A program made the translations under genes and the position numbers. Under the pieces are notes generated by a model. That model was not told the origin of the DNA and ran no database searches. It saw only the letters and a program-made list of their open reading frames with translations. Shown piece by piece: positions 19,230 through 42,600 of a stretch of DNA of 64,000 nucleotides. Origin of the DNA: Phycisphaerae bacterium (GTDB taxonomy: Bacteria > Planctomycetota > Phycisphaerae > Phycisphaerales > UBA1924); NCBI GenBank assembly GCA_014192545.1, contig BJHL01000001.1:358380-422379 (forward strand), in the 5' to 3' direction. How positions within the stretch are numbered: position 1 is the stretch's first letter; each line of letters starts with the position of its first letter.

Positions 19230-19238
19230 AGGTCGGTC

Positions 19239-23271: not shown

Positions 23272-23299
23272 TCGAATTCTCAACACGCGCCCATCTCAC

Positions 23300-25072: not shown

Positions 25073-25086
25073 ACCGCTCGCCGCAA

Positions 25087-26283: not shown

Positions 26284-26428
26284 GAGCGATGATACCAAGA
26301 TGATACCAGTGGGGGACACGTTCACGGAGGCGGTATCTGTAGGGGTTTGTAAGTCTTATAATCACCGTCCGAACTTTCCACCAACTCTTCACACTCAAAA
26401 TCATCGCAACACAATGCAAAGAAAGGGG

Positions 26429-26457
26429 TTGACGCAAGCCGCCCACCACGGGATACT
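26429..26457 (+). promoter_or_regulatory. Promoter upstream of the HU-like gene
   Basis: TTGACG (26429-26434), exactly 17 bases, GATACT (26452-26457). It gives a leader of about 205 bases before the ATG at 26670. That leader contains a perfect hairpin, CTCGCG/CGCGAG (26589-26604). A separate perfect TATAAT at 26357-26362 lacks a recognisable -35. Confidence 0.55.
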
Positions 26458-26669
26458 TCCCACCCAGCATTCGCAGCGGCCATAGTCTTGTGCGTCTACG
26501 GTGCACAACTACTTTGGTCCGTGAACGTTGGTGTGTGTTGTGGGGGTCCCAAGCATCGTAAGTGCTTGCTGGCCATAGGAATCCATGACTCGCGGCATCG
26601 CGAGCTTGGATACGAAAAGCAGAATCTCTCAGCGGCCGCCGGAACACCTGCGGCTGAAAAAGGACGACT

Positions 26670-27050
26670 ATGGCGACGATCACGAAGAAGGACCTGGTCG
26701 AACGCATCACCACCAAAACCGGCGTGAAGCGTCACGAAGTCAAAGACGTCTGCCAGGAATTCCTCGATCAGATCATCATCGAGCTCCGCCGCGGCAATCG
26801 CCTCGAGTTCCGCGACTTCGGCGTCTTCGAAGTCAAGGAACGCGCCGCCCGCATTGCCCAAAACCCCAAGACCATGCAAAAGGTCGAGGTTCCCTCCAAG
26901 CGGGCCGTCAAGTTCAAGGTCGGCCGCCTCATGCGCGAAAGCGTCGAGATGCCGCCCCAGCCCATTCGCAACATCCCCGCGGCAGCCGCCGTCGAGGTCA
27001 AGCCCGCCGCCACCCCTTCGTCCATCAAAGTCCCCGCCGGCGCACGCTAA
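26670..27050 (+). CDS. HU/IHF family DNA-binding protein with C-terminal extension
   Basis: 126 aa. Residues 1-92 are the histone-like HU/IHF fold: ATITKKDLVERITTKTGVKR, then RLEFRDFGVFEVKERAARI and the arm NPKTMQKVEVPSKRAVKF. Normal HU is about 90 residues; here a further 35 Ala/Pro/Val-rich residues follow. AAGGA lies upstream of the ATG. It bends and compacts DNA in the nucleoid. It lies upstream of rnpA-yidD on the same strand, 127 bases away. Confidence 0.92.
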   Translation: MATITKKDLVERITTKTGVKRHEVKDVCQEFLDQIIIELRRGNRLEFRDFGVFEVKERAARIAQNPKTMQKVEVPSKRAVKFKVGRLMRESVEMPPQPIRNIPAAAAVEVKPAATPSSIKVPAGAR

Positions 27051-27177
27051 CCGCTTTCGCGATTGATTTCAATTTCTTTTCTTCTTTGCGTTCTTTGCGT
27101 GCTTCGCAGTGAACTCGGCTTTCGTCGAGCCCGCAGCCCGCGAACGGTCCCAACCACCATCGCACTAGCATTCGCTT

Positions 27178-27594
27178 GTGGCCCAGCGTCCCACCGACAA
27201 GCCAGATTTTTCCCTCCCGCCCTCGCGGCGATTATCCCATGACTTGGAATACCAAGCCGTCTACGCCGCTCGCATGAAAAAACAACGCGGCCCGCTCACC
27301 GCCTTCGTCGCCCCCAACAACCGAACCTTCTGGCGCATAGGCCTCGCCGTCGGCAAGCGCGTCGGCAACGCCGTCGAACGCAACCGCATCAAGCGCGCCC
27401 TGCGCGAAGCCTTCCGCCACGTGCAACACCAGTTGCCGCGCTTCGATGACGCCCTCGCCTGCGATGTCGTTCTTTCGGCCAACGCCCACGCAAGCCTCAC
27501 ACCCGCCGAGTACCAATCGCTCGTCATGGAACTCGCAACCCTCGCCCATCGCGATTGGATACGCCGCGGCAAACGCAGCGGAGACGTCGCCTGA
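27178..27594 (+). CDS. rnpA: Ribonuclease P protein component
   Basis: 138 aa from a GTG at 27178. The RNR signature [18 protein letters not shown] is present, with the upstream [12 protein letters not shown] strand. It pairs with the RNase P RNA to mature tRNA 5' ends. rpmH, normally upstream, is absent here; the HU-like gene takes its place. The TGA stop overlaps the ATG of yidD by one base (TGATG), so the two are probably translationally coupled. Confidence 0.93.
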
Positions 27595-27887
27595 TGTGCA
27601 CCACGCCCAACCCCGCGCCCAACAACGCGCCGTCCGCGCCCAGCACGCCCACGCCACTACCCACCCGACAACGCGTCCTCGCCTGGCCCCTCATCGCCCT
27701 CGTCAAACTCTACCAGTTCACCCTCTCGCCCATCATGGGCCGCCAATGCCGCTTCTACCCAACCTGCAGTTGGTACGCCCTCGAAGCCCTCCGCACCCAC
27801 GGCCCCCTGCGAGGAACCTGGCTCACCATCAAACGCCTCGCCCGCTGCCACCCCTTCCACCAAGGCGGCTACGACCCAGTGCCATGA
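27594..27887 (+). CDS. yidD: Membrane protein insertion efficiency factor YidD
   Basis: 97 aa from the ATG at 27594. The core is the usual short YidD sequence: [57 protein letters not shown]. The first 25 residues are a Pro/Thr-rich tail. YidD assists YidC-mediated membrane protein insertion at the inner face of the membrane. In many bacteria rnpA, yidD and yidC are neighbours; no yidC is in the window. Confidence 0.95.
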
Positions 27888-28004
27888 ACCCGATCGCGCG
27901 CCTCTGCGTATCTCGCAAAAAATCTCAACTTCCCTTACCGCGTCCACCCGCGCTCTCCGCGTAAATCAAAGTGCAGCAGGCTTCCCGGCCCGCTTGCTCG
28001 CGTT

Positions 28005-28034
28005 GCGTTTGTTGAACAGCCGTTTGTTGCACAG
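28005..28034. repeat. 15-bp tandem repeat, two units
   Basis: GCGTTTGTTGAACAG (28005-28019) and CCGTTTGTTGCACAG (28020-28034), 28 bases upstream of the start of the amber-interrupted gene. Confidence 0.65.
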
Positions 28035-28062
28035 TGCCTTTGTGCCCGCCGGTCATAACGCT

Positions 28063-28428
28063 ATGGACAACTCTGACGTGCAAGATCCGTCCACCGTGAT
28101 TGGCCCCGGCAACGCCTGCCCCGTTAATGGCCCTCGCACGCACATCGGTCAATACAAGCTCCGGCAAGTCATCGACTTCGACATGACCAAAGCGATGAAC
28201 TAGCACCTCACCGGCAAAACCGACTTCACCGAACTCCGCCAGTTCATCGGCAGCAAACGCGGCTACAACCGGAAACTCGGCGACGTCATCGCAACACAAG
28301 TCGTCTACGTGCCCGTCAGCGAAGCCTGCAAAACCGACCAAACCCGCACATACAGCGTGCTCGCCCTCCTTGCGAGTTTATTCATCCTGGTAGGCGGCGA
28401 GATCATCCTGTTACGCAGGCGAGCCTGA
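28063..28428 (+). pseudogene. Single-helix membrane protein gene interrupted by an in-frame TAG
   Basis: From the ATG at 28063 the frame encodes MDNSDVQDPSTVIGPGN... for 46 codons to TAG (28201-28203). It then continues without another stop for 74 codons (HLTGKTDFTELRQFIGSKRG...) to a TGA at 28426. The second part ends in a clear helix with positive residues after it (VLALLASLFILVGGEIILLRRRA). Third-position GC is high on both sides of the TAG. The likely explanation is a point nonsense mutation in a small membrane protein; sequencing error or readthrough are alternatives. Family unknown. Confidence 0.55.
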
Positions 28429-28470
28429 ATCTAAGCCTGAATCTAAGCCTGCACTTCTGCCTGCACCTCG
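28423..28470. repeat. 12-bp tandem repeat at convergent gene ends
   Basis: GCCTGAATCTAA twice (28423 and 28435), then GCCTGCACTTCT and GCCTGCACCTCG. The array contains the stop of the interrupted gene and encodes the C terminus of the CDF transporter on the minus strand (EVQAEVQA), so it may have grown by slippage and altered that terminus. Confidence 0.7.
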
Positions 28471-29339
28471 CGCACCGGCTCGATGTGAATCAGCACATTC
28501 GCAACTTCACTCATCTGCTCGCGAATTGCTGACTTCACCTTGCCACTCACCACATGCGCCTCCGCCACGCTCATCGTCGGCGCAACTTCCATATGCAGAT
28601 CAATGTACACATTTGATCCACTCCGCCGGGCATGCACCTTGTGCGTCCCGCGCACGCCCTCAACCCCGCGCGCAATGGTTTCCGCCTTCTGCGCCGTCGC
28701 AACGTGCGTTTTATCCGTCAACTCACCAAGCGGCCGGCGCATCAGCAACGCGCCATTCACAATAATCACGCAGCTCGCAACCAGTGCCGCAACATCATCA
28801 GCCGGTTCCCACCCTTTGCCGCCCCACAATGCCACTGAAATGCCGACAAACGCCGCAACCGACGTAATCGCATCGGCTCGATGATGCCACGCATCAGTCT
28901 CAACCGCATTGCTGCCAGCCTTGCGCGCCGCACGCCGCGCCACGCGAAACATCGTCTCCTTCGTGAGCACTACCACCACCAGTACGATCAACGTAAACGG
29001 CTCAGGAGCATGATGGGGCGTGATGATCTCGTCCACCGCTTTGATCGCGATGCCGATTCCCGCAACGAGCAACATGCCCGCGACAACAAGTGCCGCCAAC
29101 GCCTCAGCTTTTCCATGCCCATACGGATGATCGTCATCCGCAGGCCGATTCGCATATCGCAGCCCGCCCCAAATCACGACCGATGCCACGATGTCGCCCA
29201 TCGACTCGACTGCATCGGCCACCAGCGCGTAACTGTGCCCCACCAGCCCCGCCGTCAATTTCACGCCTGCCAGCACCACGTTGACCATCATGCCAATCAA
29301 CGTGACTTTCTCGGCATGTGCAACAGCAGCATCTGACAT
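28443..29339 (-). CDS. Cation diffusion facilitator (CDF) family transporter
   Basis: 298 aa. Six-helix CDF membrane domain with metal-site blocks ADAVESMGDIVAS (helix 2) and HHRADAITS (helix 5), plus DDHPYGHGKAEALAAL, followed by the cytoplasmic ferredoxin-like domain (GVEGVRGTHKVHARRSG, then VYIDLHMEV). It exports divalent metals such as zinc or iron using the proton gradient. The HHR-D helix-5 site is common to Zn/Fe-type members, but metal choice cannot be fixed. The start is ATG at 29339. Convergent with the interrupted gene. Confidence 0.93.
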   Translation of the reverse strand: MSDAAVAHAEKVTLIGMMVNVVLAGVKLTAGLVGHSYALVADAVESMGDIVASVVIWGGLRYANRPADDDHPYGHGKAEALAALVVAGMLLVAGIGIAIKAVDEIITPHHAPEPFTLIVLVVVVLTKETMFRVARRAARKAGSNAVETDAWHHRADAITSVAAFVGISVALWGGKGWEPADDVAALVASCVIIVNGALLMRRPLGELTDKTHVATAQKAETIARGVEGVRGTHKVHARRSGSNVYIDLHMEVAPTMSVAEAHVVSGKVKSAIREQMSEVANVLIHIEPVREVQAEVQA

Positions 29340-29407
29340 GCCTCATGGTACGAGCGAACATCGCGGCAATTCCGTTTCATCCGCCCGTCGCTGCGCCGCC
29401 TCCTGAT

Positions 29408-29608
29408 TTACCAGCACATGTTGTACCCACTTATCCCCACCCACCAAGCGGAAAACACAACTCGCGCGGAGACAACGAACAATGCCGCCACCAGCCGCGG
29501 CGAAACTTCAACGAACCACGCAACACACAACGCTATGCGAAACACGCCCAGCGCAAGCGCAGAATCCAAGGTCGGCATGAGCACACGTCGCCAGATCACA
29601 AACAGCAT
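29408..29608 (-). CDS. Possible small hydrophobic protein
   Basis: 66 aa (MLFVIWRRVLMPTLDSA, ending WWVGISGYNMCW) with two hydrophobic stretches, in the 440-bp gap between the CDF gene and the lipoprotein gene. No ribosome-binding site and no recognised family. Apart from the octamer array at 29650-29689, nothing else is seen in the gap. Confidence 0.22.
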   Translation of the reverse strand: MLFVIWRRVLMPTLDSALALGVFRIALCVAWFVEVSPRLVAALFVVSARVVFSAWWVGISGYNMCW

Positions 29609-29649
29609 ACATCAAAACACACAAACGCGCCAACTCACCCCATCACCCA

Positions 29650-29689
29650 CTCACCTGCTCACCTGCTCACCTGCTCACCTGCTCACCCT
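29650..29689. repeat. 8-bp tandem array
   Basis: CTCACCTG four times (29650, 29658, 29666, 29674) plus CTCACCCT, with degenerate units of the same period extending upstream (about 29626). It ends about 90 bases before the lipoprotein start. Confidence 0.88.
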
Positions 29690-29780
29690 ATCATTTCCTG
29701 CCACCCCACCCTAATACGATGTCAAACGATCGGCGACAGCGCCGGACTTGACAGAAAAGCAGCAAACAAGAGGGGCGATT

Positions 29781-30380
29781 ATGACATTGCAAAAGTGTGC
29801 GTGGACCCGTGGACGAAGCCTGCCTGCGTTGCTCCTCTGCACGATGTTTGGCTTGGGCTGCTACACGATGCCCGATCGATTTCGTATCGTGAACATGTCC
29901 TCGCAAACCCTCGAACTCAAAGGCCAGCACGGATCGGGTGTCGAGATAAGTGCAGTGCTGCCTCCGAACGCGAACATGTCGCTGAAACTCAAGGATCGTG
30001 GAGGATTCAGTGGCTCAATTCAAGCAGCCGACCAACGCTGGAGCGCACCCAAAGGCGGCGAAGTTGAACTGTGCTTCATCGACGATCCCGCAGACAACTC
30101 GCGACTGGCACTGGTTCCCATCAGCGGCAGAATCGTTGAACGTGCGAGCAAAGCCGTCACCGCCGACGATGACGAATACATCGTCGCCAATCGCACAAGC
30201 AGCAATGTCCTTGTCATTCACGAAGCAGGACAGCCCGCGACACTGCTCGAAGCAGGGCAGACGGTGACGAATCGGCTGCCACCTCAAGGCGATGTCACCT
30301 TTCGCACGATCATCAAGGGCGTGATTCGCGACGTCACGCTGCCGCGTGAGAGTGATCGTGTGTGGGAAGTGCGCGAGTGA
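29781..30380 (+). CDS. Predicted lipoprotein, unknown function
   Basis: 199 aa from the ATG at 29781, with GAGGGG seven bases upstream. The N terminus has basic residues (KCAWTRGR), a hydrophobic core and a lipobox LLCTMFGLGCYT with the modifiable Cys at about 27. The mature part looks like small beta domains with repeated phrases (RIVNMSSQTLELKG, then VANRTSSNVLVIHEAG) and contains no enzyme motif. It is expected to be membrane-anchored outside the cytoplasm. Transcribed in the same direction as glyS, 54 bases upstream of its start. Confidence 0.72.
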   Translation: MTLQKCAWTRGRSLPALLLCTMFGLGCYTMPDRFRIVNMSSQTLELKGQHGSGVEISAVLPPNANMSLKLKDRGGFSGSIQAADQRWSAPKGGEVELCFIDDPADNSRLALVPISGRIVERASKAVTADDDEYIVANRTSSNVLVIHEAGQPATLLEAGQTVTNRLPPQGDVTFRTIIKGVIRDVTLPRESDRVWEVRE

Positions 30381-30434
30381 CCAGCAATCTGTGCTGAAAA
30401 CGGCGAGGTGCCCGCCCTCATATCATCGCGACCT

Positions 30435-32021
30435 ATGACCGCCATCCCCGCCGAACAAGCCGCCAACACGCCCGCCAACGCCCCCAAATCCATGGACGCC
30501 ATCATGTCGCTCTGCAAGCGACGCGGGTTCATCTACCAAGCCAGTGAAATCTACGGCGGCATCAATGGCTTCTGGGATTACGGCCCCCTCGGCGCGCAAA
30601 TGAAAAAGAACCTGCGCGAAGCCTGGTGGCAGGACATGATTCTCAATCCCTGCTGGGGCAAGAAAGGCCCAAACGGCCAACGCGTCGACTGCGTCCCCGT
30701 CGAGACGCGCATCATCCAACATCCCAAAGTCTGGGAAGCCAGCGGCCACATCGGCGGGTTCAATGATCCGATGGTTGACTGCAAAGAAACCAAGTCGCGA
30801 TATCGCTACGACCACGTCAGCGTCTACGCGCCCGCATCAGGTGACGCAGGCGACAAGCCGCTGTTCGCGTACATGAAAGACTCGCCCAGCGAAGCCAAGC
30901 AACTGAAGAAAGCCGAGAAAGCATTCGGTACCGTCAAGACGATCATGCTGACAGATGTGCCTGTTGCCAACTTTGCAAAGGTGCTCGCGCCCGATGCGGA
31001 AAAAGTCGGCACGCTCACAGAGCCCAAGCAATTCAACCTCATGTTCCGCACCTACATCGGCGCAACCGCCGGCGAAAATGATGTCGCCTACATGCGCCCC
31101 GAAACCGCCCAAGGCGTCTTCATCAACTTCAAAAACGTCGTCGATACCTGTCGCGTCAAAGTCCCCTTCGGCATCGGCAACACCGGCACCAGTTTCCGCA
31201 ACGAAGTAACGCCGCGAAACTACACCTTCCGCTCGCGCGAGTTCGAACAAGCCGAGCTCGAGTTCTTCTGCCATCCCGACGAGTCCTTCGAGTGGTACAA
31301 GTTCTGGCGAGACTTCCGCATGGCCTGGTGGCAGTCCATCGGCCTCGCGGGCGACAACCTCATCCTGCGCGAGCACGACAAAGACGAACTCAGCCACTAC
31401 TCCGTCGGCACCAGCGACGTTGAATATCGCTTCCCCTTCACCGCGCCGGGCTTTGGCGAGCTCGAAGGCATCGCCCACCGCGGCAACTTCGATCTTACGC
31501 AACATCAAAAGCACAGCGGCGCCAAACTCGAGTACTTCGACCAACAACGCGGCGAACTGCTCCCCAACGGCAGCCGCCGAGGCGAACGCTACTTGCCGCA
31601 CTGCATCGAACCCGCCGCGGGCCTCGATCGCGGCGTGCTTGCACTGCTCTGCGAAGCCTACACCAAAGACGAATCGCGCCCCAGCCCCGAATTCATGAAG
31701 CTCCACCCGCGGATCGCGCCCATCAAAGCCGCGATTTTTCCGCTTGTCGCGAAAGACGGCATGCCCGAAATCGCCGAGAAACTCTACAACGAAGTCCGCG
31801 CCAAATTCGGCAAGATCGGCTTTATCGACTTCGACGAAAAGCAGACCATTGGCAAACGCTACGCCCGCATGGACGAAGCCGGCTGCCCCTTCTGCTTCAC
31901 CATCGACGGCGAAACGGCGAAGGACAATACCGTGACTATGCGCGACCGCGACACGGGCCAGCAACAACGCATGAACATGGATCAAGTCTTGCCGTTCCTC
32001 ACCGCGAAACTCGAGACATAA
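30435..32021 (+). CDS. glyS: Glycyl-tRNA synthetase, dimeric type
   Basis: 528 aa from the ATG at 30435. Class II synthetase: CKRRGFIYQASEIYGGINGFWDYGPLG at the N terminus, then MRPETAQGVFINFKNV (motif 2 region), IGNTGTSFRNEVTPRN, and the C-terminal anticodon-binding part (AAIFPLVAKDGMPEIA). This is the single-chain alpha-2 type of eukaryotes, archaea and some bacteria, not the alpha2-beta2 enzyme. It charges tRNA-Gly in the cytosol. A repeat-family hairpin starts 23 bases after the stop. Confidence 0.96.
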   Translation: MTAIPAEQAANTPANAPKSMDAIMSLCKRRGFIYQASEIYGGINGFWDYGPLGAQMKKNLREAWWQDMILNPCWGKKGPNGQRVDCVPVETRIIQHPKVWEASGHIGGFNDPMVDCKETKSRYRYDHVSVYAPASGDAGDKPLFAYMKDSPSEAKQLKKAEKAFGTVKTIMLTDVPVANFAKVLAPDAEKVGTLTEPKQFNLMFRTYIGATAGENDVAYMRPETAQGVFINFKNVVDTCRVKVPFGIGNTGTSFRNEVTPRNYTFRSREFEQAELEFFCHPDESFEWYKFWRDFRMAWWQSIGLAGDNLILREHDKDELSHYSVGTSDVEYRFPFTAPGFGELEGIAHRGNFDLTQHQKHSGAKLEYFDQQRGELLPNGSRRGERYLPHCIEPAAGLDRGVLALLCEAYTKDESRPSPEFMKLHPRIAPIKAAIFPLVAKDGMPEIAEKLYNEVRAKFGKIGFIDFDEKQTIGKRYARMDEAGCPFCFTIDGETAKDNTVTMRDRDTGQQQRMNMDQVLPFLTAKLET

Positions 32022-32043
32022 CCCGACACCAAATCTCTCGACG

Positions 32044-32073
32044 CCGGACCTGAGGCTCTGCGAAGGTCCGGAT
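32044..32073 (+). repeat. REP-like hairpin, copy B
   Basis: CCGGACCT (32044-32051), loop GAGGCTCTGCGA, AGGTCCGG (32064-32071): a perfect 8-bp stem, 22 bases after the glyS stop. It is the best-preserved of the three copies. Confidence 0.75.
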
Positions 32074-32809
32074 GAATGACGCAACAAGCACCGCTTCCCG
32101 CCACATGCATCGCACAACCCAGCCCATGACCTCTGCCGACCGCAATGCCCTCACGCGGCGTCTTGCTGATGGCACTGGTCCCTCGGCGCTGCGATTATTG
32201 ATGTGGCCCACGCTCGCCGTTTTTTCGATCATCTTGATCGTTGTTTCCTTCCGCATCGTCAAAGACCCCAATGCCGGCCCGCTTGTCTTTGTTGCCATGC
32301 TCATGCTCATCTTGGGCGCGGTCGTCTTCATCGTCGCGCTCTTCAAGTCAACTTCTGATATCGCCCAAGCACGCGAGACTCTCGCGACGCGTAAAGAACT
32401 CGAAGTTGCACTTGCAGCCCCGCATGTCGAAGTGATAACGCTCAAAGTAACCGCTGCGTGGTTTGTTCCGTGGTCCGACGACGACGTCGAGCCTCCCGTC
32501 CTTCTCTGTGATGAAGCCGGCGAGTTTCTCGTCTTGTGCGACGCCAGCGACATCATCGACACCGAAGAAGAACAGGATGAAGAGTTCATTTCGCGCATCC
32601 CTGCACAAATCACGCTCCGAATCACGCAATCGCCCTGCCCACTCGTGCTCCACGCCGCCGCAACGGGCAACGACATCATCGTCTTACACACGAAAGCCAA
32701 ATGGCCCGACGACTACAAGGCTTACCAACTGCCGATTGACACCGAAGAAATCACCATTCTCACCCTCGCAGACCTCACTCCATCATGGCGCACCGTGCTC
32801 AATAAATGA
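32072..32809 (+). CDS. Hypothetical two-helix membrane protein
   Basis: 245 aa from the ATG at 32072, or fewer if Met 13 or 19 is used. Two adjacent helices (ALRLLMWPTLAVFSIILIVVS and GPLVFVAMLMLILGAVVFIVAL) precede a soluble C-terminal domain of about 150 residues with an acidic run (DTEEEQDEEF). No family was recognised. AAGG before the first ATG lies in the REP-like hairpin, so the start is uncertain. Another copy of that hairpin follows the stop. Confidence 0.6.
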   Translation: MNDATSTASRHMHRTTQPMTSADRNALTRRLADGTGPSALRLLMWPTLAVFSIILIVVSFRIVKDPNAGPLVFVAMLMLILGAVVFIVALFKSTSDIAQARETLATRKELEVALAAPHVEVITLKVTAAWFVPWSDDDVEPPVLLCDEAGEFLVLCDASDIIDTEEEQDEEFISRIPAQITLRITQSPCPLVLHAAATGNDIIVLHTKAKWPDDYKAYQLPIDTEEITILTLADLTPSWRTVLNK

Positions 32810-32818
32810 GACCGCCCC

Positions 32819-32847
32819 TGGACCTCAGGCTTTGCGAAGTTCCGGAT
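32819..32847 (+). repeat. REP-like hairpin, copy C
   Basis: TGGACCT, loop CAGGCTTTGCGA, AGTTCCGGATC; more divergent than copies A and B. It begins 10 bases after the stop of the two-helix protein. Confidence 0.6.
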
Positions 32848-32866
32848 CAAACTACCCTCCGCGCAC

Positions 32867-32894
32867 ATTCTTCATTCTCCATTCTCCATTCTCC
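32867..32894. repeat. 7-bp tandem array
   Basis: ATTCTTC followed by three exact ATTCTCC units with a 7-base period. It ends 35 bases before the GTG start of the MFS gene. Confidence 0.8.
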
Positions 32895-32929
32895 GCCCAT
32901 CTTTCCTCACTCCCCGGCATCCAACCCCC

Positions 32930-34207
32930 GTGACTAATTCGACCAATCCGACCACCCCGACCACCCACTCACTCGGCCCCCTCTCGCGCACCCACGTTCT
33001 TCTCGTCCACGTCCTCGCCGTCGCGTTGCTCCAAGGCTCCGCCAACGCGATTCAAGGACTGCTCGCCGTCATCGCGAAGAAAGAGTTCGCCGCCGCCAAC
33101 TGGCAAGTGGTCATCATCACCAGCGCGCCCACGGTTTTCTTTGTCCTCTCGATTTTCTGGAGTGGCCTCTTCGCTCGCCGCCGACTCGGCACGTTCATGC
33201 TCATCTATTGGGCGATTTTTTGTTTGCCGCTCGCGTTCATCGGCCTCGCAACGAACATCTGGATGCTCATCGCACTCCAGCTCATCTCCTCCATCGGCGC
33301 CGCCGGTTACCACCCGCCTGCGGGTGATCTGCTCAAGCGGCTTTACCCCGATGCGCAACGCGGCCGCATCTATAGCTTCGTCTGGGGCGGCTGGATGATC
33401 TCCGCGGCGTTGTTTGGTTATGGCCTGGGCCAATGGCTCACAGTCGATAGTCACGCGTTTCGTTACTACATGCCACTCGCGGCGGGCTTGCAGTTGCTGG
33501 GCGTCATGTTGCTGCTCTGGCTTAGTCGCGCCACAGGCCACACGCAGCAGCGAGAAGGCACGATCGACCGCTCACCCTGGTCGCTGCGCCAAGCCTTTGA
33601 GCCGATTGCGCACATGCGCGAAGTGCTGCGCGCCGATCCGGTTTTTGCTCGTTACGAAGCGGCGTACATGACGTACGGCATCGGGTGGATGATCACGTAC
33701 GCGCTGATTCCGATTTTCGTTGTTGACAAACTCAACCTCAACTACGAACAAATCGCCAAGAGCACGCAGGTTGCGTATCAAGTTGCAATCGTCGTGGCCG
33801 CGTTGCCGGCGGGCTGGCTGATGGATCGCATCGGCGCAATCCGCACATGCTCGATCAGTTTTGCGATGCTGACGTTTTATCCGATAGCACTGATTTTCAC
33901 CGCGAAGGAAGATCACCTGCTGCTGGCAAGTTTGTGGTTTGGTTTGGCCCACGCTGGCGCGAGCGTTGGTTGGATGCTGGGGCCGGTGTCGCTTGCGCCA
34001 AGCCGCGAGAAGGTCGCGCAGTATGTGGGCATTCACGCAACGCTGGTGGGCGTGCGTGGAGCGATTTTTCAGGCGGCGGGCGTGGGGCTGTACAGCTTGA
34101 CGCATAGTTTCACTTGGCCGTTTGTTTTCGCGGGCGCGGCGTTTGCGTGGAGTGCTTGGCAGATGTGGACGCTGCACCGGGCAGAAAGGGTGAAGGCGGC
34201 GGTGTAA
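32930..34207 (+). CDS. Major facilitator superfamily transporter
   Basis: 425 aa from a GTG at 32930, about twelve hydrophobic helices. MFS features seen are FVVDKLNLNYEQI, GWLMDRIGAIRTCSIS (loop 8-9 motif A-like) and SSIGAAGYHPPAGDLLKRLYPDAQRGR in the first half. The layout is close to sugar- or fosmidomycin-resistance-type MFS proteins, but the substrate is unknown. The codon pattern shifts within the gene from C-ending to G-ending codons, at the place where the strand skew of the whole window changes. The tetR gene follows 82 bases downstream and may regulate it. Confidence 0.85.
   Translation: MTNSTNPTTPTTHSLGPLSRTHVLLVHVLAVALLQGSANAIQGLLAVIAKKEFAAANWQVVIITSAPTVFFVLSIFWSGLFARRRLGTFMLIYWAIFCLPLAFIGLATNIWMLIALQLISSIGAAGYHPPAGDLLKRLYPDAQRGRIYSFVWGGWMISAALFGYGLGQWLTVDSHAFRYYMPLAAGLQLLGVMLLLWLSRATGHTQQREGTIDRSPWSLRQAFEPIAHMREVLRADPVFARYEAAYMTYGIGWMITYALIPIFVVDKLNLNYEQIAKSTQVAYQVAIVVAALPAGWLMDRIGAIRTCSISFAMLTFYPIALIFTAKEDHLLLASLWFGLAHAGASVGWMLGPVSLAPSREKVAQYVGIHATLVGVRGAIFQAAGVGLYSLTHSFTWPFVFAGAAFAWSAWQMWTLHRAERVKAAV
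33300..33960. other. GC-skew inflection zone
   Basis: Left of this zone the + strand carries more C than G whether genes run + or -; to the right it carries more G. My hand counts for 60-base lines: 3121-3180 about C29/G18, 7081-7140 C21/G14, 35041-35100 G25/C13, 51241-51300 G27/C11. Lines within the zone alternate. A change from C-rich to G-rich usually marks a replication origin; no dnaA gene or DnaA-box cluster was found. Confidence 0.55.
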
Positions 34208-34240
34208 GTACCGGGTCGGTGCGTCCCACAGGTTGTTTCC

Positions 34241-34274
34241 GCACTAACTTGGGCACTAACTTCGGCACTAACTT
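34241..34274. repeat. Three GCACTAACTT repeats with 12-bp period
   Basis: GCACTAACTT occurs at 34241, 34253 and 34265, each followed by a two-base spacer. The array ends 15 bases before the tetR start. Spacing near one helical turn fits an operator or iteron-like array. Confidence 0.85.
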
Positions 34275-34289
34275 ACGCTACCATGCGGC

Positions 34290-34889
34290 ATGGGTCGATT
34301 GCCTGCGGATCAGCGTCGGGAGCAGTTGTTGGATGTCGCCGCGGAGTTGTTTGCGCGCGATGGTTATGCCCGCGCGACGACGGCTCAGCTTGCGAAGGCG
34401 GCGGGGGTGACGGAGCCGATTATTTATCGGCATTTTGAGAGCAAGCGGGATTTGTTTGTTGCGCTGATTGAGCGGACGGCGCACGACACGCTCGAGCACT
34501 GGGAGAATCGGCTGGCGACGGCGAAGGATCCGGCGGATCGGATTGCGCGGCTAACGGAGGAGAATCCGTTTACGACGCCGGGCGGGCGGGTGCCATATCG
34601 GGTGTTTTTGCAGGCGATTACTGAAGTGAATGATCCGGTGATCCATAAGGCGGTGGTGGCGCACATTCGCGAGCTGCACAAGTTTTTGGCGCGGGAGATT
34701 GGGCAGGCGCAGGAAGAGAAGAAGATTACCAAGCTCTTCTCGGCGGAGCTCATGGCGTGGACGCTGATTCATATTGGGCTGGGGTATGGGTTCTTGGATT
34801 CGATGAATGTGCCGAACCAAGGAATGGATGAGCATGGGAACCATGTGCAGCCGATGCTGGCGAGGGTTTTGACGCGGCGGCATGAGTAG
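34290..34889 (+). CDS. TetR/AcrR family transcriptional regulator
   Basis: 199 aa. The N-terminal helix-turn-helix is typical: RREQLLDVAAELFARDGYARATTAQLAKAAGVTEPIIYRHFESKRDLF. The C-terminal ligand domain is helical and not assigned to a ligand. The gene follows the MFS transporter, so local control of that exporter is likely. The three 12-bp repeats directly upstream could be its own operator. The codons are G-ending, like the rest of the right-hand part. Confidence 0.92.
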   Translation: MGRLPADQRREQLLDVAAELFARDGYARATTAQLAKAAGVTEPIIYRHFESKRDLFVALIERTAHDTLEHWENRLATAKDPADRIARLTEENPFTTPGGRVPYRVFLQAITEVNDPVIHKAVVAHIRELHKFLAREIGQAQEEKKITKLFSAELMAWTLIHIGLGYGFLDSMNVPNQGMDEHGNHVQPMLARVLTRRHE

Positions 34890-34892
34890 GGG

Positions 34893-34948
34893 CAAATTGC
34901 CAAATGGCTAAATGGCAAAATGGCAAAATGGTCAAATTGCTAAATGAA
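34893..34948. repeat. 8-bp tandem array, seven units
   Basis: CAAATTGC, CAAATGGC, TAAATGGC, AAAATGGC, AAAATGGT, CAAATTGC, TAAATGAA: an exact 8-base period with drifting units, filling the gap between tetR and the cysteine desulfurase gene. Confidence 0.85.
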
Positions 34949-34980
34949 GGCGCGATGGGGTCGTGGTCGTACGCTTCGCG

Positions 34981-36183
34981 GTGATTTACCTGGATAACAA
35001 CGCGACGACGCAGCCTTCGGCTTTGGTGGTGGCGGCGGTTGCGCGTGGGTTGCAAGAGCTGTGGCAGAATCCAAGTTCGATTCATCGCGGGGGGCAGGCG
35101 GCGAGGCAAGCGGTGGAGTTGGCGCGCGCGAGTTGTGCGAGGCTGGTTGGGGGCAAGCCCAGAGAGATTGTGTTGACGAGTGGTGGGACGGAGGCGATTG
35201 ATTTGGGGATTCGCGGCGTGCTCGCGGCGAGGCGCGGCGGTGTGGTGCCGACGCTGGTGACGAGCAAGGTGGAGCACGCGGCGATTCGGGATTTGGCGGA
35301 GGAGCTTGAGCGCACGAAGCAGGCAAGTGTGAAGTGGCTCAAGCTGACGAGTGATGGGCGGATTGATTTGGGCGGCTTGGATGTGATTGATGCGAGTTGT
35401 GGGCTGGTGGCGGTGCAATGGGCCAACAACGAGACGGGGGCGATTCAGCCGATTGGCGCGATTGCGAAGCGATGCAAGGAAGTTGGTGTGCCGCTACTGG
35501 TGGATGGAACGCAATGGGTGGGGAAGCTGCCGACAGATGTGAACAGCGTGGATGGGGTGAGTGAGGCGATTGATTTGCTGGTGGTGTCGGCGCACAAGTT
35601 TCATGGGCCGAAGGGTGTGGGATTTTTGTGGGCGAGGCAGGGCGTGCGGATGCGACCGGTGCTGCTTGGAACGCAGGAGCTTGGTCGGCGTGGGGGGACG
35701 GAGAATGTGGCGGGGATAGTTGGGATGGGGGCGGCGTGTGAGGAGGCGATTGGGTTTGTGAGTGATGCGGCGGAGCGCGAGCGTGTGCGGGAGCTGCGGG
35801 ATTTGTTTGAGCGCGCGGTGTTGGAAGCGGTGCCGGATGCGCGGGTGAATGGGCCGACGGGGCGCGAGGGGGCGCGCGATGAACGGCTGTGGAACACGAC
35901 GAATATTGGGTTTCCGGGGTTGGAAGCCGAGGCGTTGTTGCTGCTGCTGAGTGAGCGCGGCGTGGCGGCGAGTGCCGGGGCGGCGTGCAGCAGCGGGAGT
36001 TTGGATCCATCGCCCGTGCTGCTGGCGTTTGGCGTGCGCGAGGCGTATGCGCACGGGTCGCTGCGGTTTAGCTTGAGCAAGTGGACGACGCGCGCCGAGA
36101 TGGAAGAGGCGGTGAGGATTTTGGTGGAGTGTGTGGGGCGGGTGCGGAGGAGCTCAGGGAGTGTGGGGAGAAGTGACCAGTGA
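34981..36183 (+). CDS. Cysteine desulfurase (NifS/IscS family)
   Basis: 400 aa from the GTG at 34981 (IYLDNNATTQPS, the usual family start); another GTG lies at 34963. PLP enzyme that releases sulfur from cysteine for Fe-S clusters or thiolation. Seen: LTSGGTEAIDLGI, VQWANNETGAIQPI, the PLP Lys in VVSAHKFHGPKGVGFLW, GGTENVAGIVGMG, and the catalytic Cys loop AGAACSSGSLDPSPVL. The C-terminal part is normal. No iscU or other isc/suf genes are adjacent. Transcribed in the same direction as tetR, across the octamer array. Confidence 0.93.
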   Translation: MIYLDNNATTQPSALVVAAVARGLQELWQNPSSIHRGGQAARQAVELARASCARLVGGKPREIVLTSGGTEAIDLGIRGVLAARRGGVVPTLVTSKVEHAAIRDLAEELERTKQASVKWLKLTSDGRIDLGGLDVIDASCGLVAVQWANNETGAIQPIGAIAKRCKEVGVPLLVDGTQWVGKLPTDVNSVDGVSEAIDLLVVSAHKFHGPKGVGFLWARQGVRMRPVLLGTQELGRRGGTENVAGIVGMGAACEEAIGFVSDAAERERVRELRDLFERAVLEAVPDARVNGPTGREGARDERLWNTTNIGFPGLEAEALLLLLSERGVAASAGAACSSGSLDPSPVLLAFGVREAYAHGSLRFSLSKWTTRAEMEEAVRILVECVGRVRRSSGSVGRSDQ

Positions 36184-36249
36184 CGGAGTGTGTGAGTTGG
36201 TGAGGGTTGAAGCTCAGCTAGAACTTTGAGCGACTTGCGCTCGCTTCGT

Positions 36250-37233
36250 TCACAGCCGGCGGCGGATCATGTCCATGATGAAGGCGAAGAGGCCCAGGCC
36301 TGCGACGATGGAGCCCCATTTCCAGACGGCGATCCATGAGCTGGCTTTGGTCGTGATTTCCCAGGTTTCAACCGAGCGGGCGGCGGGAATTTCTTCGAGG
36401 CCGACTTGTTTGCCGGTGGCGTCGAGGATTTTGCCGGATTCGACGTCCCATTTTTTCACTTCCAGAGCGGCGGGGTCAAAGTGCAGGCGTTGATCGAGGT
36501 CGGCGGGATTGACGTCGAGGGCGGTGACGGTCCAGGTGGTGACTTTGTCGGTTGTGCTGGTGGTTTTGTCGGCGGCTTCCGTCGTCGTGGTTTCACACTC
36601 GATGATGCGTGAGGGCAGGGCGATGGTGACGTCGCCGACTTGCACGGGGGATGCGTCGGCGAAGGTGAGGTTCCAGGTGGACTCGTTGATGTCGATGGTC
36701 AAGCCGGCGAGTTCGCCTGCGCGGGTTGCGTTCAAGTTGAATGCGAACTTGGGTGACGCGAGTGTGATGTTGTCGCAACTCATGCGACCGGTTGTGAAGG
36801 TGTGTTTGTCGTCGGCACTCGCGTGCTGCGTGAGCTGGTTGAGCATGGGCCACGGTGCGAGCATGGCCCAGCGCGGCGGGACGGTGTTCCACAGATCGGT
36901 TTCGGTGTTTTCAATGTAGCTGTCGCGGCCTACGCGGCTGGTGCGAGAGGTGCTGCCGTCGAAGTAGAGGAAGGAGAAGGGGCGATTGGGGTAGAGTTTG
37001 CCGTCTTCGGAGCGGTAGCGGGCGAAGGCGATGCGCTTTTGGTTGTCGAGGGTGAGGAGGATTCGCTCGGGCTTGCCGGTGTCGCCAGCGGGGGTGTCGA
37101 GCGTGAGGGCGAGGCTGGTGATGCGCGAGGAGCGATCAAGCAGCGAGGTGAAGGCGGCGGGGGTTTGCGCGAGGGCGGTGGTGGCGAGTGAGGTTGCCAG
37201 TCCGGCGCAGAGGATGGGGAATGCAAGGTTCAT
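36250..37233 (-). CDS. Secreted or membrane-anchored protein, unknown function
   Basis: 327 aa. A signal peptide (LAFPILCAGLATSLATTALAQ) ends near residue 22. The body resembles a LolA/DUF2092-like beta protein in tone (ITSLALTLDT, RILLTLDNQKRIAFAR), but I do not claim the family. A C-terminal helix with positive tail (VAGLGLFAFIMDMIRRRL) anchors it in a membrane. It is divergent from the TpsB gene over a 300-bp gap in which I see no clear promoter motif. Confidence 0.6.
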   Translation of the reverse strand: MNLAFPILCAGLATSLATTALAQTPAAFTSLLDRSSRITSLALTLDTPAGDTGKPERILLTLDNQKRIAFARYRSEDGKLYPNRPFSFLYFDGSTSRTSRVGRDSYIENTETDLWNTVPPRWAMLAPWPMLNQLTQHASADDKHTFTTGRMSCDNITLASPKFAFNLNATRAGELAGLTIDINESTWNLTFADASPVQVGDVTIALPSRIIECETTTTEAADKTTSTTDKVTTWTVTALDVNPADLDQRLHFDPAALEVKKWDVESGKILDATGKQVGLEEIPAARSVETWEITTKASSWIAVWKWGSIVAGLGLFAFIMDMIRRRL

Positions 37234-37535
37234 ACCGCGTTATCGACGCGGTTTGCTGGTGAGTTTGGTGGGGTTGGCGGGAGGGGATGGGTTCGCGTGA
37301 TGCGGATGCGGCCTGCGGGGAGTTCAAGTTCGGTTCGCGCAGAAGATGCGCCGATGTGGGTGATTGCCGGGAGTTGGGTGCGGGTGGTGTTGGGGACGCG
37401 AGGCTGCTCGTGTGGCGTTTGACGCATACCTTCGCAGACTGTGGTGCAGCGAGGGCTGCGGCGCAGGGGCGGTGGCGTTGAGATTGCAAATCGCAGAGGC
37501 GATGCTATCAGTTTTTTGACCACGCGAGGAATCTG

Positions 37536-39569
37536 ATGATGCGTGCAGGTCGTGCAGCCGGTGTGCGTGTAATTCCGTCGGTCGCAGCGTTTTTGCTGGC
37601 GGCGTGCGGACAGGCTTTCGCACAACAATCTCCATCGGGCGGGCAGCCGTTTGATGTCAATTCGGTGCGGCCCGGGCAACCTGGGTTACAGCGTGTGACG
37701 GCGGCGGCGACGAGCGCGCTGGGGCGAACTGAGGCGGCGGCTGAGCAGGGGCCCAGCTATAAGGTCTCGCGATTTCTGATTGAGTATCGCACGGAGCATC
37801 CGCAGCATCCGGCAATTGATGGCGTGATGAATGCGCCGGTGCAATTGTCGCAAGGACCGGATGGGTACCTCGCGCCGCGAGCGGGTGAGCCGACTTCGAC
37901 GGTGCGGCTGGCGGACATCATGCCGGCGAACCCGGGGGTGTTTAGTCAGGCGGCACTGAGTGTTGTTGCGAAGGGAATTGTGGAGCAATTGCAGCGGCAG
38001 GGGCTGGCGAGCATCATCGTGCAGTTGCATCCGGATGATATTGATAGCGAAACGGGCGCGGATAAGCGGCCCAGCCAAGATGGCGATTTGCGAATGATTG
38101 TGTGGACGGGTGAAGTGGGCAGCGTGCGCTCGGTGGCGGTTGGGGAGCGACTGGAGAATCGCATCGCGAAGGGGACGACCACGCGCGTTGATAGCAATGA
38201 TGCGGCACACACGCGCATTCGCGAGCAAAGCCCGGTGAAGGCTGGCGAACTGGTGAGCAAGGGCGCCATCGATGACTACGTGTACCGGCTGAATCGGCAT
38301 CCGGGCCGGCGCGTGGATGTGAGCGTGGCGCCCGGTGAGCAGGAGGGACAAGTTGCGCTCGATTACCTGATCAACGAAGCCAAGCCTTGGACGATTTATG
38401 CTCAGGCGAGCAACACGGGCACGGAAAACACCAACGACTGGCGTTACCGCGTGGGGTTCAGTCATAACCAGCTCACGGGCAATGACGACATTCTGCGGGT
38501 GGATGCATTCACGGCGGGTGTTGATGAAGCCAACGGCATTCAAGGCAGCTACGACTTTCCGCTGCGGAGCGATGTGCTGCGGCTGAAGGTTTTTGGCGGC
38601 TACAGCGAGTATGACGCGAGCGATGTGGGTGCGTCGGGCGAAGCATTTTCGGGACAGAATTACAATGTGGGAGCCGAGCTGGCTTACACGGCGTATCAGA
38701 ATGGCCGATTCTTCCTGGATGGGATTTTTGGTGCACGGTACAACAGCGTGCAGGTGACCAACGACCTGTTTCTGGAGCGCGGCGAAGAGCAGTACTTCAC
38801 GCCTTTCATTGGCGCGCGGGCGGAGCGCGTGACGGATGTGAGCGAGACGTTTGCGAGCCTGACATTTGAGTGGATGGCGTCCAACATCTCGGGCGTGAAC
38901 CTGGCTGACTTGAACAGCTTGGGACGGCCCGGCGCTGATGAAGAGTGGCAGATCATCCGCTTTGATGGCTATCACAGTTTTTACTTGGAGCCGCTGTTTA
39001 GCGATGTGTACAAGGGCAAGGGCGACAAGGGTCGCAAGACGCTGGCGCATGAAATCGCCTTGTCGGCTCGCGGGCAGTACGCGTTCAACACGCGGCTGAT
39101 TCCTAACGAGCAGGACGTGATCGGCGGTTTCTTCAGCGTTCGCGGCTATCCCGAGAGCGTGGTGGCGGGCGACAGTTCGCTGGTCGGCACGCTTGAATAC
39201 CGCTTCCACTATCCGCGCACGTTTGCCATCAGCGATCCGGGGACACTCAACGGCCGCGACTACAACAGGCTCGCGAGCTTCCTCGGCAAAGATTTCCGGT
39301 ACGCCCCGCAAGAGGCGTTTGGACGAGCCGACTGGGACCTGATCTTCAAGGGCTTTGTCGATGCTGGCACGGTACTGGTGTCGGGATCAACTCCCGGTGA
39401 AGACAACTACACACTGATTGGCACGGGTGTTGGCGCTGAACTGCAAGTAAAGCGCAATCTCGTGGCGCGTCTGGACTGGGGCTTGGCCCTGACTGACGTG
39501 GACGACCCGGCCAACCGCGTGGACAGCGGCGACAACCGATTCCACTTCCTGCTGACGTTGTTGTATTGA
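37536..39569 (+). CDS. TpsB-type outer-membrane secretion pore (ShlB/FhaC/HecB family)
   Basis: 677 aa, starting with GAGGAA before the ATG at 37536. A signal peptide (RVIPSVAAFLLAACGQAFAQ) is followed by a disordered stretch, POTRA-like domains (about 70-265, ending with RLNRHPGRRVDVSVAPG) and a C-terminal 16-strand barrel. The barrel carries the VRGY motif as FSVRGYPESVVAGD. FhaC-type pores export the partner adhesin through its TPS domain. The adjacent gene at 39646 is exactly such a partner. The Omp85-superfamily call is sound. Confidence 0.87.
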   Translation: MMRAGRAAGVRVIPSVAAFLLAACGQAFAQQSPSGGQPFDVNSVRPGQPGLQRVTAAATSALGRTEAAAEQGPSYKVSRFLIEYRTEHPQHPAIDGVMNAPVQLSQGPDGYLAPRAGEPTSTVRLADIMPANPGVFSQAALSVVAKGIVEQLQRQGLASIIVQLHPDDIDSETGADKRPSQDGDLRMIVWTGEVGSVRSVAVGERLENRIAKGTTTRVDSNDAAHTRIREQSPVKAGELVSKGAIDDYVYRLNRHPGRRVDVSVAPGEQEGQVALDYLINEAKPWTIYAQASNTGTENTNDWRYRVGFSHNQLTGNDDILRVDAFTAGVDEANGIQGSYDFPLRSDVLRLKVFGGYSEYDASDVGASGEAFSGQNYNVGAELAYTAYQNGRFFLDGIFGARYNSVQVTNDLFLERGEEQYFTPFIGARAERVTDVSETFASLTFEWMASNISGVNLADLNSLGRPGADEEWQIIRFDGYHSFYLEPLFSDVYKGKGDKGRKTLAHEIALSARGQYAFNTRLIPNEQDVIGGFFSVRGYPESVVAGDSSLVGTLEYRFHYPRTFAISDPGTLNGRDYNRLASFLGKDFRYAPQEAFGRADWDLIFKGFVDAGTVLVSGSTPGEDNYTLIGTGVGAELQVKRNLVARLDWGLALTDVDDPANRVDSGDNRFHFLLTLLY

Positions 39570-39645
39570 GATTTGAAGTGCCAGAGTGCTGAGTGCGAAG
39601 TTGAGAATTTGCGGCTGATTGGCCGCTGAGATATGGAGTTTGCTC

Positions 39646-42600
39646 ATGACGCGTATGGATGTGCTTGCGCGGTCGCCGTTTTCAGTCAGCAAGGTTTCGG
39701 TTTGTAAGTTCTCCGTCACCATGGCTCTGGTGGTTGCGGCGGGGTGCGCTGCACCGGCGCTGGGCGGGCCCGAGGGCGAGCAGGTGCGGCAGGGCTCGGT
39801 GCGCTTCACGCGGGACGGCGCGGGCAACACGGTGATTCATGCGAGTGATCGCTCGATAATCAACTATCGCTCGTTCAACATCGGCAGCAACGAATCGGTG
39901 CGATTTGTGCAGCCTGACAGTTCGAGCCGGGTGCTGAATCGCATTACGAGTGCGGCACCCACGCGGATTGATGGCAGCTTGACGTCCAACGGTCGCGTGT
40001 ACATCGTCAATCCGGCGGGCGTGGTCTTTGGGCGCAGCTCGGTGATCAACGTCAACGGGTTGTTCGCGGCTGCGGGCAAGATGAGCGACAGTGATTTCAA
40101 TCGCGGCATTGATCGCGTGACCAATATGACGGGGCTGGTGAGCAATGAAGGCCTAATTCGCGTGGATCAAGGCGGCAGCGTGCAACTGGCGGGCGGGCAA
40201 GTTGCCAACATGGGCACGATTGTCGCGCCGCAGGGCACGGTGGCGATGGCGGCGGGGACGGATGTTGTCTTTACAAGCCGAAACGATGTGATGCATGTGC
40301 GCGTGGAAGGGCCTGCGCAAGGTGACGCGAATACGGCTGCGGTGACGAACACGGGAACGATTGAAGCGCGGCGCGGCATGGTGACGATGGCGGCGGGCGA
40401 TGTGTATGGCCTTGCGATTCGCACCACGGGCAAGGTGACGGCGCGCGATACAACGATTGCGGGCAGTGGCAGTGGGCGCGTGCTGGTTGAAGGCACGATT
40501 GATGGGGCGAACCAGGCGGGCGAGCGAACTGGTGGCGCGAATGCCGATTGGACGAATCGGTTTAGTCGGGCGAATGTGACCAGTAGCAACAAGGGCGGCA
40601 CGATCACGATCACGGGCGAGACGGTGGGCCTGTTTGGTGCAACGCTGGATGTCAGCGGCACGGCGGCGGGCGGACAAGTTCGCATTGGTGGCGACGTGAC
40701 CGGCTCGGCACTTGCTGGGGGACTGCGCAACAGCACCGTCACGGTTGCTGACAGCGCGACGACGATTCGGGCCGATGCCACGCAGCGTGGCGATGGCGGC
40801 AGCGTGGTGATCTGGTCTGACGACACGACGCGCACGGCGGCGGCGATTTCGGCAAAGGGTGGACAAACCGGCGGCGACGGCGGCTTTATTGAAACCAGCG
40901 GCAAGCAGTACTTGGCGGTGGATGGCTCGCGCATCGAGGCGAGTGCATCGCGCGGTGATGCTGGCACGTGGCTGCTTGATCCGCGGAACGTGAACATCAC
41001 GACGGGCACGACGAACACCCCGGTGAGTGGCACGGACCCGGGGGTTTTCACGCCCAGCGCGGATGATTCGGAGATTGCGGCGGCGGACATTACCAGCCGG
41101 CTCAACAGCGGCACGAGTGTGACGGTCAACACAGGCAGCAACGGCATTCAGGCGGGTGATATTCGCATTCAGGCCGACATCGTGCGCAACGCGGCCAGTG
41201 GCAGCCCCACGCTGCGGCTGGAAGCGGCGAATGACATTGTGCTGGAGAGTGGCAGGCGGATTGAAGCTATCGGCGGCGGCTCGCTGAATGTTGAGATGCT
41301 TGCCAATCGCGGGGGCGGCAGTGATCTTGATCCGGAATCGGGCTCGATCTGGTTGCAGTCAAACTCGAGCATTGAAACGCGAGGCGGCAACATTCTGCTC
41401 GCGGGCGGCGATGTGCTGACGCCGGATTTGGCTGATCCGACGAGCGGGGGTTACGCGAGTGCGCTGCGAAGCAGTGCGGCCAGAGGCAGCTCCGCGAACC
41501 CCATCGGTGTGCGGCTTGAAGGCACAACCGTTGACGCGGGCACGGGCAGTGTGACGGTGCGAGGCGTGGGTGCTGACAACATCGATGGCGGCGTGGGCGT
41601 GCGCATTGCGGGAACGGTGCTGGGCACTACGGTGCGCATTGATGGTTTGGGCGGCCAGGCACTTGGCGGCGGCGTGGGCACTGGCAACTACGGCATCTTG
41701 GTTGATGGCGCGAGCGGCACGGTGATTTCCAACGGCCTTGTCGCGATGCAAGGCACGGGCGGCATCAGCAATGAAAACGACGCAGTAGGTGTGCTGATTC
41801 GCAACGGCAGTGTGGTGGGACAGAACGCGGGCAACTCGCAAACTGTTTCGATCTTCGGCATTGGCGGAAGTGGTGCTGGCTCGCGCAATCACGGTGTTTC
41901 GCTTGAAGGTCTGGGGCAGGTCCGCCACGCAGGTACGGGCGGCATCACAGTTCGCGGCAATGGCGAAGGCAGCGGCGGAAGCAGCCACGGCATTACGACG
42001 GCCACTGATGACACTGCGTTCCGCGCGGAACTTGCGAGTGCTTCGGCGATTTCGCTCACGGGTTTGTCGAGCACAGCCGCGAGCAGTTACGGCGTGCTGA
42101 TTTCAGGCAATAGCGCGGGCGCGGATGTGCTCGCGGGAAGTTCGACGGCGGCTCGCGCGGTGAGCATCACGGGCGAAGCACGCGGCAACTTCAATCGCGG
42201 CGTGGGCCTGAGCAGCAATGCACGCGTGCAAGGCACCGGCGTGAGCGTGACGGCGTTCAATCGCGATGGCACATCCAACGGCGATCAATTGACGGGCATT
42301 GGCGCCAACGCAGGCAGCCTCGATGCACGCTCGGGCAACTTGGCTCTCACGCTTGATTCCATCGGCGTCGAAACTGTGCAACTGCTGGGCACGGGCAACT
42401 TGCAAGTGCGTGCTCGCGATGGTGTGGACCTGCACCTAGGCGACACAACGGGCGGACTTGATTTCAGTTACGCCGAGATCGACAACATCGCGACGGGTAC
42501 CAACGGTTTCAACACTGTCACGTTCAACGGCGGCACATCGGACCTGTTTGTTGATACGGTGGATTTCTCGAGCAAGTCCTACGACGTCACGCTGGCGGGC

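What the first reader, a model, noticed from the sequence alone, without database searches (positions are those of the whole stretch)
33300..34290. Sharp strand-skew switch inside the MFS gene: candidate replication origin
The + strand is C-rich to the left and G-rich to the right for genes of either orientation, and synonymous codons change from C-ending to G-ending within one gene. A change in this direction usually marks oriC. The rnpA-yidD pair, often near oriC, is 6 kb away, and an iteron-like 12-bp triple repeat lies at 34241. No dnaA gene or DnaA-box cluster was seen, so this is only a candidate.
Basis: partly seen in the sequence, partly recalled or inferred. Interest (0 to 1): 0.65.

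Follow-up and report, generated by a model that had tools for sequence, protein, structure and literature searches.

The report
Bacterial chromosome with many origin-like sites
The strand-composition switch in this window is real, but it is only one of about 21 such switches found in 1.56 Mb of this planctomycete's genome, and their sharp-up, slow-down pattern is what a chromosome copied from dozens of fixed starting points would show, where textbook bacteria use one.

Summary
Across 64 kb the + strand goes from C-rich to G-rich with a single minimum near 33.4-33.6 kb, inside an intact MFS gene, for genes of both orientations. The reading as the chromosome's oriC does not hold. The window is C1:358380-422379 of a 3.66-Mb Planctomycetota genome (probably Phycisphaerae). 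The contig (978 kb) carries 13 strong C-to-G jumps, and 580 kb of a second contig carries 8 more, one per ~75 kb. Between jumps the skew declines gradually through zero: a sawtooth. Strong jumps are nearly all upward (18 up, 3 down at J>=0.6). The signal sits at fourfold-degenerate sites (leading strand G 56%, C 21%), is independent of gene strand (r=0.89), and recurs in two relatives of the same family and, weakly, in one of the same order. This is the signature of many fixed bidirectional replication origins with spread-out termination, as in archaea and eukaryotes. No clustered DnaA boxes, A+T-rich element or shared motif marks the jumps, so the initiator is unknown. Two DnaA paralogs are conserved in the order. 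Inversions, transcription and misassembly explain the pattern poorly. All evidence is compositional; marker-frequency or Okazaki-strand sequencing would decide.

The parts
33531..33663 (.). Origin-like upward skew jump: support interval of the change point, centre about 33603
   Evidence: Two-level maximum-likelihood fit on fourfold-degenerate and intergenic G/C sites; cumulative GC-skew minimum 33379
32930..34207 (+). Intact MFS transporter gene across which synonymous third positions turn from C-rich to G-rich as a gradient
   Evidence: Pfam MFS_1 1.6e-31; 45-53% identity over nearly the full length in six family members; third-position counts
1..33300 (.). C-rich (leftward-fork-like) domain; continues leftward in the contig and fades toward C1:330 kb
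34000..62000 (.). G-rich (rightward-fork-like) domain; fades to the right and changes sign near C1:450-455 kb
34241..34274 (+). Three 10-bp copies GCACTAACTT at 12-bp spacing, just upstream of the TetR gene; not found at other jumps
34290..34889 (+). TetR-family regulator; the triple repeat upstream could be its operator (inference)
   Evidence: Pfam TetR_N 1.2e-17
36250..37233 (-). Minus-strand gene right of the jump whose own third positions are C-rich (G3 skew -0.60), i.e. + strand G-rich: shows independence of gene strand
28443..29339 (-). Minus-strand cation-efflux gene left of the jump whose own third positions are G-rich (+0.43), i.e. + strand C-rich

Best explanation
The jump is one of many fixed bidirectional replication origins (initiation zones up to about 1 kb wide) on a multi-origin bacterial chromosome, spaced about 75 kb apart, or roughly 50 if the rest of the 3.66-Mb genome is alike. 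Forks leave each origin in both directions, so the + strand is lagging (C-rich) to the left and leading (G- and T-rich) to the right. Forks from neighbouring origins meet at variable places, so the skew declines gradually through zero between origins. Shown: the sawtooth, its sharp-up/slow-down asymmetry, its presence at silent sites, its independence of gene strand, its recurrence in relatives. Inferred: that replication causes it, and that the sites act today. Not known: the initiator. I think DnaA (either paralog) acting without clusters of classical DnaA boxes, or a DnaA-independent mode as in some cyanobacteria, is most likely.
For: 13 up-jumps with J>=0.5 on C1 and 8 on C2; counts of separate jumps up:down are 18:3 at J>=0.6, 12:1 at >=0.7, 8:0 at >=0.8 (sign test P 7e-4, 1.7e-3, 4e-3); third-moment test of increments P about 0.001. 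Mean profile between C1 jumps falls nearly linearly from +0.36 to about -0.42. A gene's fourfold skew follows its flanks (r 0.84-0.85), with almost no gene-strand term (coefficient -0.03); 10-kb bins, + against - genes, r=0.89 on C1 and 0.75 on C2. Near jumps the leading strand has G 56%, C 21%, and T exceeds A, the usual bacterial leading-strand bias. 64% of genes are co-oriented with the inferred fork where skew is strong. Family relative G013 has a J=0.93 jump with a sawtooth, G017 a weaker one, order relative G039 a weak oscillation. E. coli oriC gives only J=0.26 by the same method, with no sawtooth in 150 kb.
Against: No experiment. No shared sequence motif, A+T-rich stretch or DnaA-box cluster marks the jumps, and the 14 perfect TTATCCACA sites in the genome are unclustered. 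Gene order is so scrambled between relatives that conservation of jump sites could not be tested. About 50 origins in 3.66 Mb is far more than any bacterium is known to need at normal fork speed. A few jumps are very abrupt (support interval under 35 bp) and could be rearrangement joints. Order relative G039 shows only weak oscillation.
Confidence: 0.68

Rival explanations
1. The genome has one origin and strong skew, but many inversions have cut it into pieces whose skew points either way; the jump is an inversion joint.
For: Gene order is heavily scrambled even within the genus. Four up-jumps lie within 0.9 kb of copies of a repeated small gene or of IDFNN-repeat genes, which could be recombination sites. 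A few jumps are abrupt and sit at gene borders.
Against: Inversions make as many sharp downs as sharp ups; 18 against 3 were found. They predict flat blocks, not the near-linear decline seen. The window's jump is a 1-kb gradient inside an intact gene.
Confidence: 0.14
2. The switch is the single chromosomal oriC.
For: Right direction of switch; rnpA about 6 kb away.
Against: Twelve comparable switches on the same contig; no DnaA boxes; dnaA genes lie about 76 and 262 kb away.
Confidence: 0.02
3. The asymmetry comes from a non-replicative process that starts at fixed sites, such as divergent transcription, R-loops, or resection at recombination hot spots.
For: No replication experiment exists; no origin motif was found.
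Against: Gene strand has no effect on the skew, against transcription. The signal reaches tens of kb and meets the next one at zero. 3'-tailed resection with cytosine deamination would give the opposite sign (inference).
Confidence: 0.1
4. Assembly artefact: the contig is a chimera of inverted pieces.
For: Draft assembly in 15 contigs; one 10-N gap about 3 kb from the 824-kb jump.
Against: Full-length gene across the jump; same pattern on a second contig and in independently assembled relatives; misjoins would be symmetric in sign.
Confidence: 0.03
5. Recombination-dependent replication starts at preferred sites without any dedicated origin or initiator (a variant of the multi-origin reading, overlapping with it).
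For: No motif and no DnaA-box clusters; four jumps lie beside repeated genes.
Against: Support intervals of about 15-650 bp for nearly all jumps are narrower than expected for diffuse starts.
Confidence: 0.15

Closest known systems
Multi-origin cyanobacterial chromosomes (Synechocystis sp. PCC 6803, Geminocystis, Cyanobacterium aponinum)
   Same: Bacterial chromosomes reported to replicate from multiple origins, some although dnaA is present, without the usual V-shaped skew (PMC7198777)
   Different: There the skew is described as irregular and replication as asynchronous; here the skew is very strong and switches at fixed, sharply placed sites
Archaeal multi-origin chromosomes (Sulfolobus, Haloferax)
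   Same: Several skew minima, one per origin (reviewed in PMC3269012)
   Different: A few origins per chromosome, with Orc1/Cdc6 initiators (own knowledge); here about one per 75 kb in a bacterium with DnaA
Skew N-domains of mammalian chromosomes
   Same: Sharp upward skew jump at the origin and linear decline between jumps (replication N-domains, PMC3320577, seen only as a search result; the description is from own knowledge)
   Different: Domains near megabase size with weak skew; here about 75 kb with fourfold skew near +/-0.6 to 0.7
Putative double-origin bacteria of Gao 2015 and multi-origin candidates of Xia 2012
   Same: Extra skew switches read as extra origins (PMC4403523, PMC3269012)
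   Different: Gao's cases have two origins, each with DnaA boxes and a replication gene nearby; here tens of sites with neither

Membership tests
Canonical bacterial oriC | Unique cumulative GC-skew minimum of the replicon | tested here: not met
   13 comparable upward jumps on C1 and 8 on the 580 kb of C2
Canonical bacterial oriC | Cluster of DnaA boxes | tested here: not met
   None in the window; at most two with one mismatch within 1.5 kb of any C1 jump; 14 perfect boxes genome-wide, unclustered
Canonical bacterial oriC | A+T-rich unwinding element | tested here: not met
   Maximum A+T at jumps 0.593 against 0.590 at random sites
Canonical bacterial oriC | Adjacent dnaA, dnaN or gidA genes | tested here: not met
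   dnaA-domain genes are at C1:467760 and C1:653826, jump at C1:391982; neighbours are MFS, TetR, aminotransferase V. dnaN and gidA were not searched genome-wide
Multi-origin chromosome read from skew | Several upward skew jumps per replicon, independent of gene strand | tested here: met
Multi-origin chromosome read from skew | Sharp jumps at origins and gradual decline (dispersed termination) between them | tested here: met
   Jump asymmetry 18:3; mean inter-jump profile; increments P about 0.001
Multi-origin chromosome read from skew | Replication starts at the jumps (copy-number peaks or fork divergence) | not testable with these tools
   No reads or growing cells available
Multi-origin chromosome read from skew | Origin positions conserved in relatives | tested here: inconclusive
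   No usable synteny; the sucB gene carrying the G013 jump carries none in the other genomes
Archaeal/eukaryotic type origins | Orc1/Cdc6 initiator | not tested
   The order has two DnaA paralogs in 38 of 41 genomes; Orc1/Cdc6 families were not searched

The most novel reading that the evidence does not exclude
A free-living bacterial lineage (a family or order of Planctomycetota) replicates its chromosome from some 50 fixed origins, eukaryote-fashion, with an initiator that does not use clustered DnaA boxes.
Probability: 0.55. Interest if true: 0.96.

Novelty: new variant of a known kind. Interest (0 to 1): 0.86.

Why it matters
One origin per chromosome is the textbook rule for bacteria, and the known or proposed exceptions are few, weakly marked or engineered. 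A bacterial lineage with dozens of sharply placed, long-lived origins would show that the rule is not a constraint of bacterial biology. It would give a natural system for asking how initiation at many sites is coordinated with DnaA-type initiators, how such a chromosome is segregated and ends its replication, and whether gene order is freed when no origin-terminus axis exists. It also has a practical side: growth-rate estimates from coverage (such as iRep, applied to freshwater Phycisphaerae in PMC6461901) and assembly checks by cumulative skew both assume a single origin.

Tried and rejected
Shared motif at jumps: all 6- to 10-mers in +/-300, 600 and 1200 bp of 21 jumps were compared with random windows; nearly all were within the null, and the one clear excess (10-mers, 1200 bp) comes largely from the repeated small gene. 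DnaA boxes: none clustered. A+T-rich element, direct repeats, hairpins, G-quadruplex: no excess; only the intergenic share is mildly raised (0.21 against 0.14, P 0.03). IDFNN-repeat genes: 4 of 13 C1 jumps within 0.5 kb, weak (P 0.015 at 1 kb). Small repeated gene: all four C1 copies lie within 0.9 kb of a jump, but the other four copies show no clear jump in the short flanks available, and same-genus relatives lack it, so it is not the general mark. The 12-bp triple repeat occurs only once on C1. Orthology of jumps: gene order too scrambled. The G013 jump inside sucB looked promising because C1 has one inside another E2 gene, but 29 other sucB loci show no shared switch. Logistic widths favour narrow ups (median 150 bp) over wide downs (6 kb), but the down fits used a coarser grid, so I rest on the jump counts instead.

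Full report
What was checked. The window is C1:358380-422379 of a 3.66-Mb, 15-contig genome (94% complete, 0.2% contamination). The nine best named matches of its cysteine-desulfurase-like protein are all Planctomycetota, mostly Phycisphaerales or other Phycisphaerae (47-58% identity), so I take it to be a member of that class; the tools gave no name.

GC skew is about -0.2 for 33 kb and then positive for nearly 30 kb. The switch is centred at about 33.6 kb and is a smooth gradient inside the MFS gene: third-position G:C counts go from 16:41 to 39:13 across six parts. The gene is intact and aligns over nearly its full length with homologues at 45-53% identity in six family members. Genes on both strands follow their side of the switch.

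It is not unique. Reading all of C1 (978 kb) and 580 kb of C2 showed that the skew rises sharply again and again and falls slowly in between. With J defined as the difference in skew at fourfold and intergenic sites between the 6 kb right and the 6 kb left of a point, there are 13 separate up-jumps of J>=0.5 on C1 and 8 on C2. The window's jump has J=0.88. The spacing averages about 75 kb (26-126 kb on C1, wider in places on C2).

The shape is a sawtooth. Up-jumps outnumber down-jumps 18:3 at |J|>=0.6, 12:1 at 0.7 and 8:0 at 0.8 (sign test P 7e-4, 1.7e-3 and 4e-3). The third moment of skew increments is positive with P about 0.001. The mean profile between successive C1 jumps falls nearly linearly: 0.36, 0.35, 0.24, 0.20, 0.04, -0.09, -0.26, -0.31, -0.43, -0.41. 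This asymmetry does not depend on which strand is read, because reverse-complementing leaves up-jumps as up-jumps.

It is mutational and not a matter of gene direction. Regressing each gene's own fourfold skew on its flanks and its strand gives slope 1.44 for the flanks and -0.03 for strand. Skew in + and - genes of the same 10-kb bin correlates with r=0.89 on C1 and 0.75 on C2. Near jumps, fourfold sites of genes on the inferred leading strand have G 56%, C 21%; on the lagging strand the reverse. T exceeds A on the leading strand. E. coli gives J=0.26 at its known oriC, which shows that the method reads an origin in the right direction, and no sawtooth in 150 kb elsewhere.

It recurs in relatives. 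Family member G013 has a jump of J=0.93 at 192.3 kb and a clear sawtooth over 220 kb (fourfold skew +0.64 falling to -0.48, then -0.73 to +0.48). G017 is similar but weaker. Order-level G039 shows only a weak oscillation. At sucB, local skew in the relatives ranges from -0.40 to +0.35, so strong local skew is common in the order while the fork direction at a given gene is not conserved.

What causes it. A sharp rise and slow fall of strand skew, bound neither to genes nor to their direction, is what bidirectional origins at fixed places with variable meeting points produce; it is how mammalian N-domains and archaeal origins are read (established knowledge). I therefore favour a multi-origin chromosome. 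Fourfold skews of +/-0.6 to 0.7 imply that fork direction at these places has been stable for a long time (inference). Inversions of a single-origin chromosome predict equal numbers of sharp ups and downs and flat blocks, and do not predict a gradient inside an intact gene. Transcription is excluded by the absence of a strand effect. Misassembly would not give a one-sided sawtooth in several independent assemblies.

How initiation might work. I found no mark of classical oriC: no box clusters, no A+T-rich element, no common word. Jumps are somewhat more often intergenic than chance. The genome has two DnaA paralogs, as do 38 of the 41 genomes of the order surveyed. One carries the canonical DHTTVMHA motif of domain IV, the other an altered one, GRGNHSTIITA, so its site preference may differ (inference). 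All four C1 copies of a small gene encoding MQSLTSYDRDLI...AYERYITYQQLDWWSRQPHIAEAI lie within 0.9 kb of jumps, with the jump always on the 3' side. This was found by looking, and four other copies could not be judged, so I treat it as a lead only.

Literature. In the open-access library searched, bacterial multi-origin replication is reported for several cyanobacteria with irregular skew (PMC7198777) and proposed for a few genomes with two origins or irregular skew (PMC4403523, PMC3269012). Nothing was found on multiple origins in Planctomycetota. Subscription papers and preprints were not covered.

Limits. All evidence is sequence composition. About 43% of the genome was profiled. The number 50 is an extrapolation. 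The gene calls are my own simple ones. The jump set was chosen by strength, so fitted widths are biased; the up/down counts are not, since both were chosen alike.

Noticed in passing
G000 C1:209264+, 495566-, 635839-, 728989+; C7:117497, C9:234, C10:50754, C15:234 (L237-L244): A family of small proteins (about 55 aa conserved) in eight copies in this genome; all four on C1 lie within 0.9 kb of up-jumps, the jump always on the 3' side. Same-genus relatives lack it; only two faint family matches.
   Followed up: partly
C1 at 24 clusters, e.g. 208156, 263013, 495119, 635467: About 62 copies of a C-terminal repeat (C-DIDFNNNGVFPEDQDVIDFFNVLAGG) on large, apparently secreted proteins; four of the 13 C1 jumps lie within 0.5 kb of one.
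   Followed up: partly
L001 (C1:653826) and L002 (C1:467760): Two DnaA paralogs, one with canonical DHTTVMHA, one with GRGNHSTIITA; two copies in 38 of 41 genomes of the order.
   Followed up: partly
window 34241-34274: Triple 12-bp-spaced repeat GCACTAACTT directly upstream of a TetR gene; probably its operator. One further single copy in C2.
   Followed up: partly
L242 and L244 (starts of contigs C15 and C9): Both contigs start with a near-identical sequence of about 230 bp before a copy of the small gene, so a repeat probably broke the assembly there.
   Followed up: no
G000 C1 against G001-G020: Gene order is almost wholly scrambled even within the genus, as would be expected if no origin-terminus axis constrained it.
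   Followed up: no
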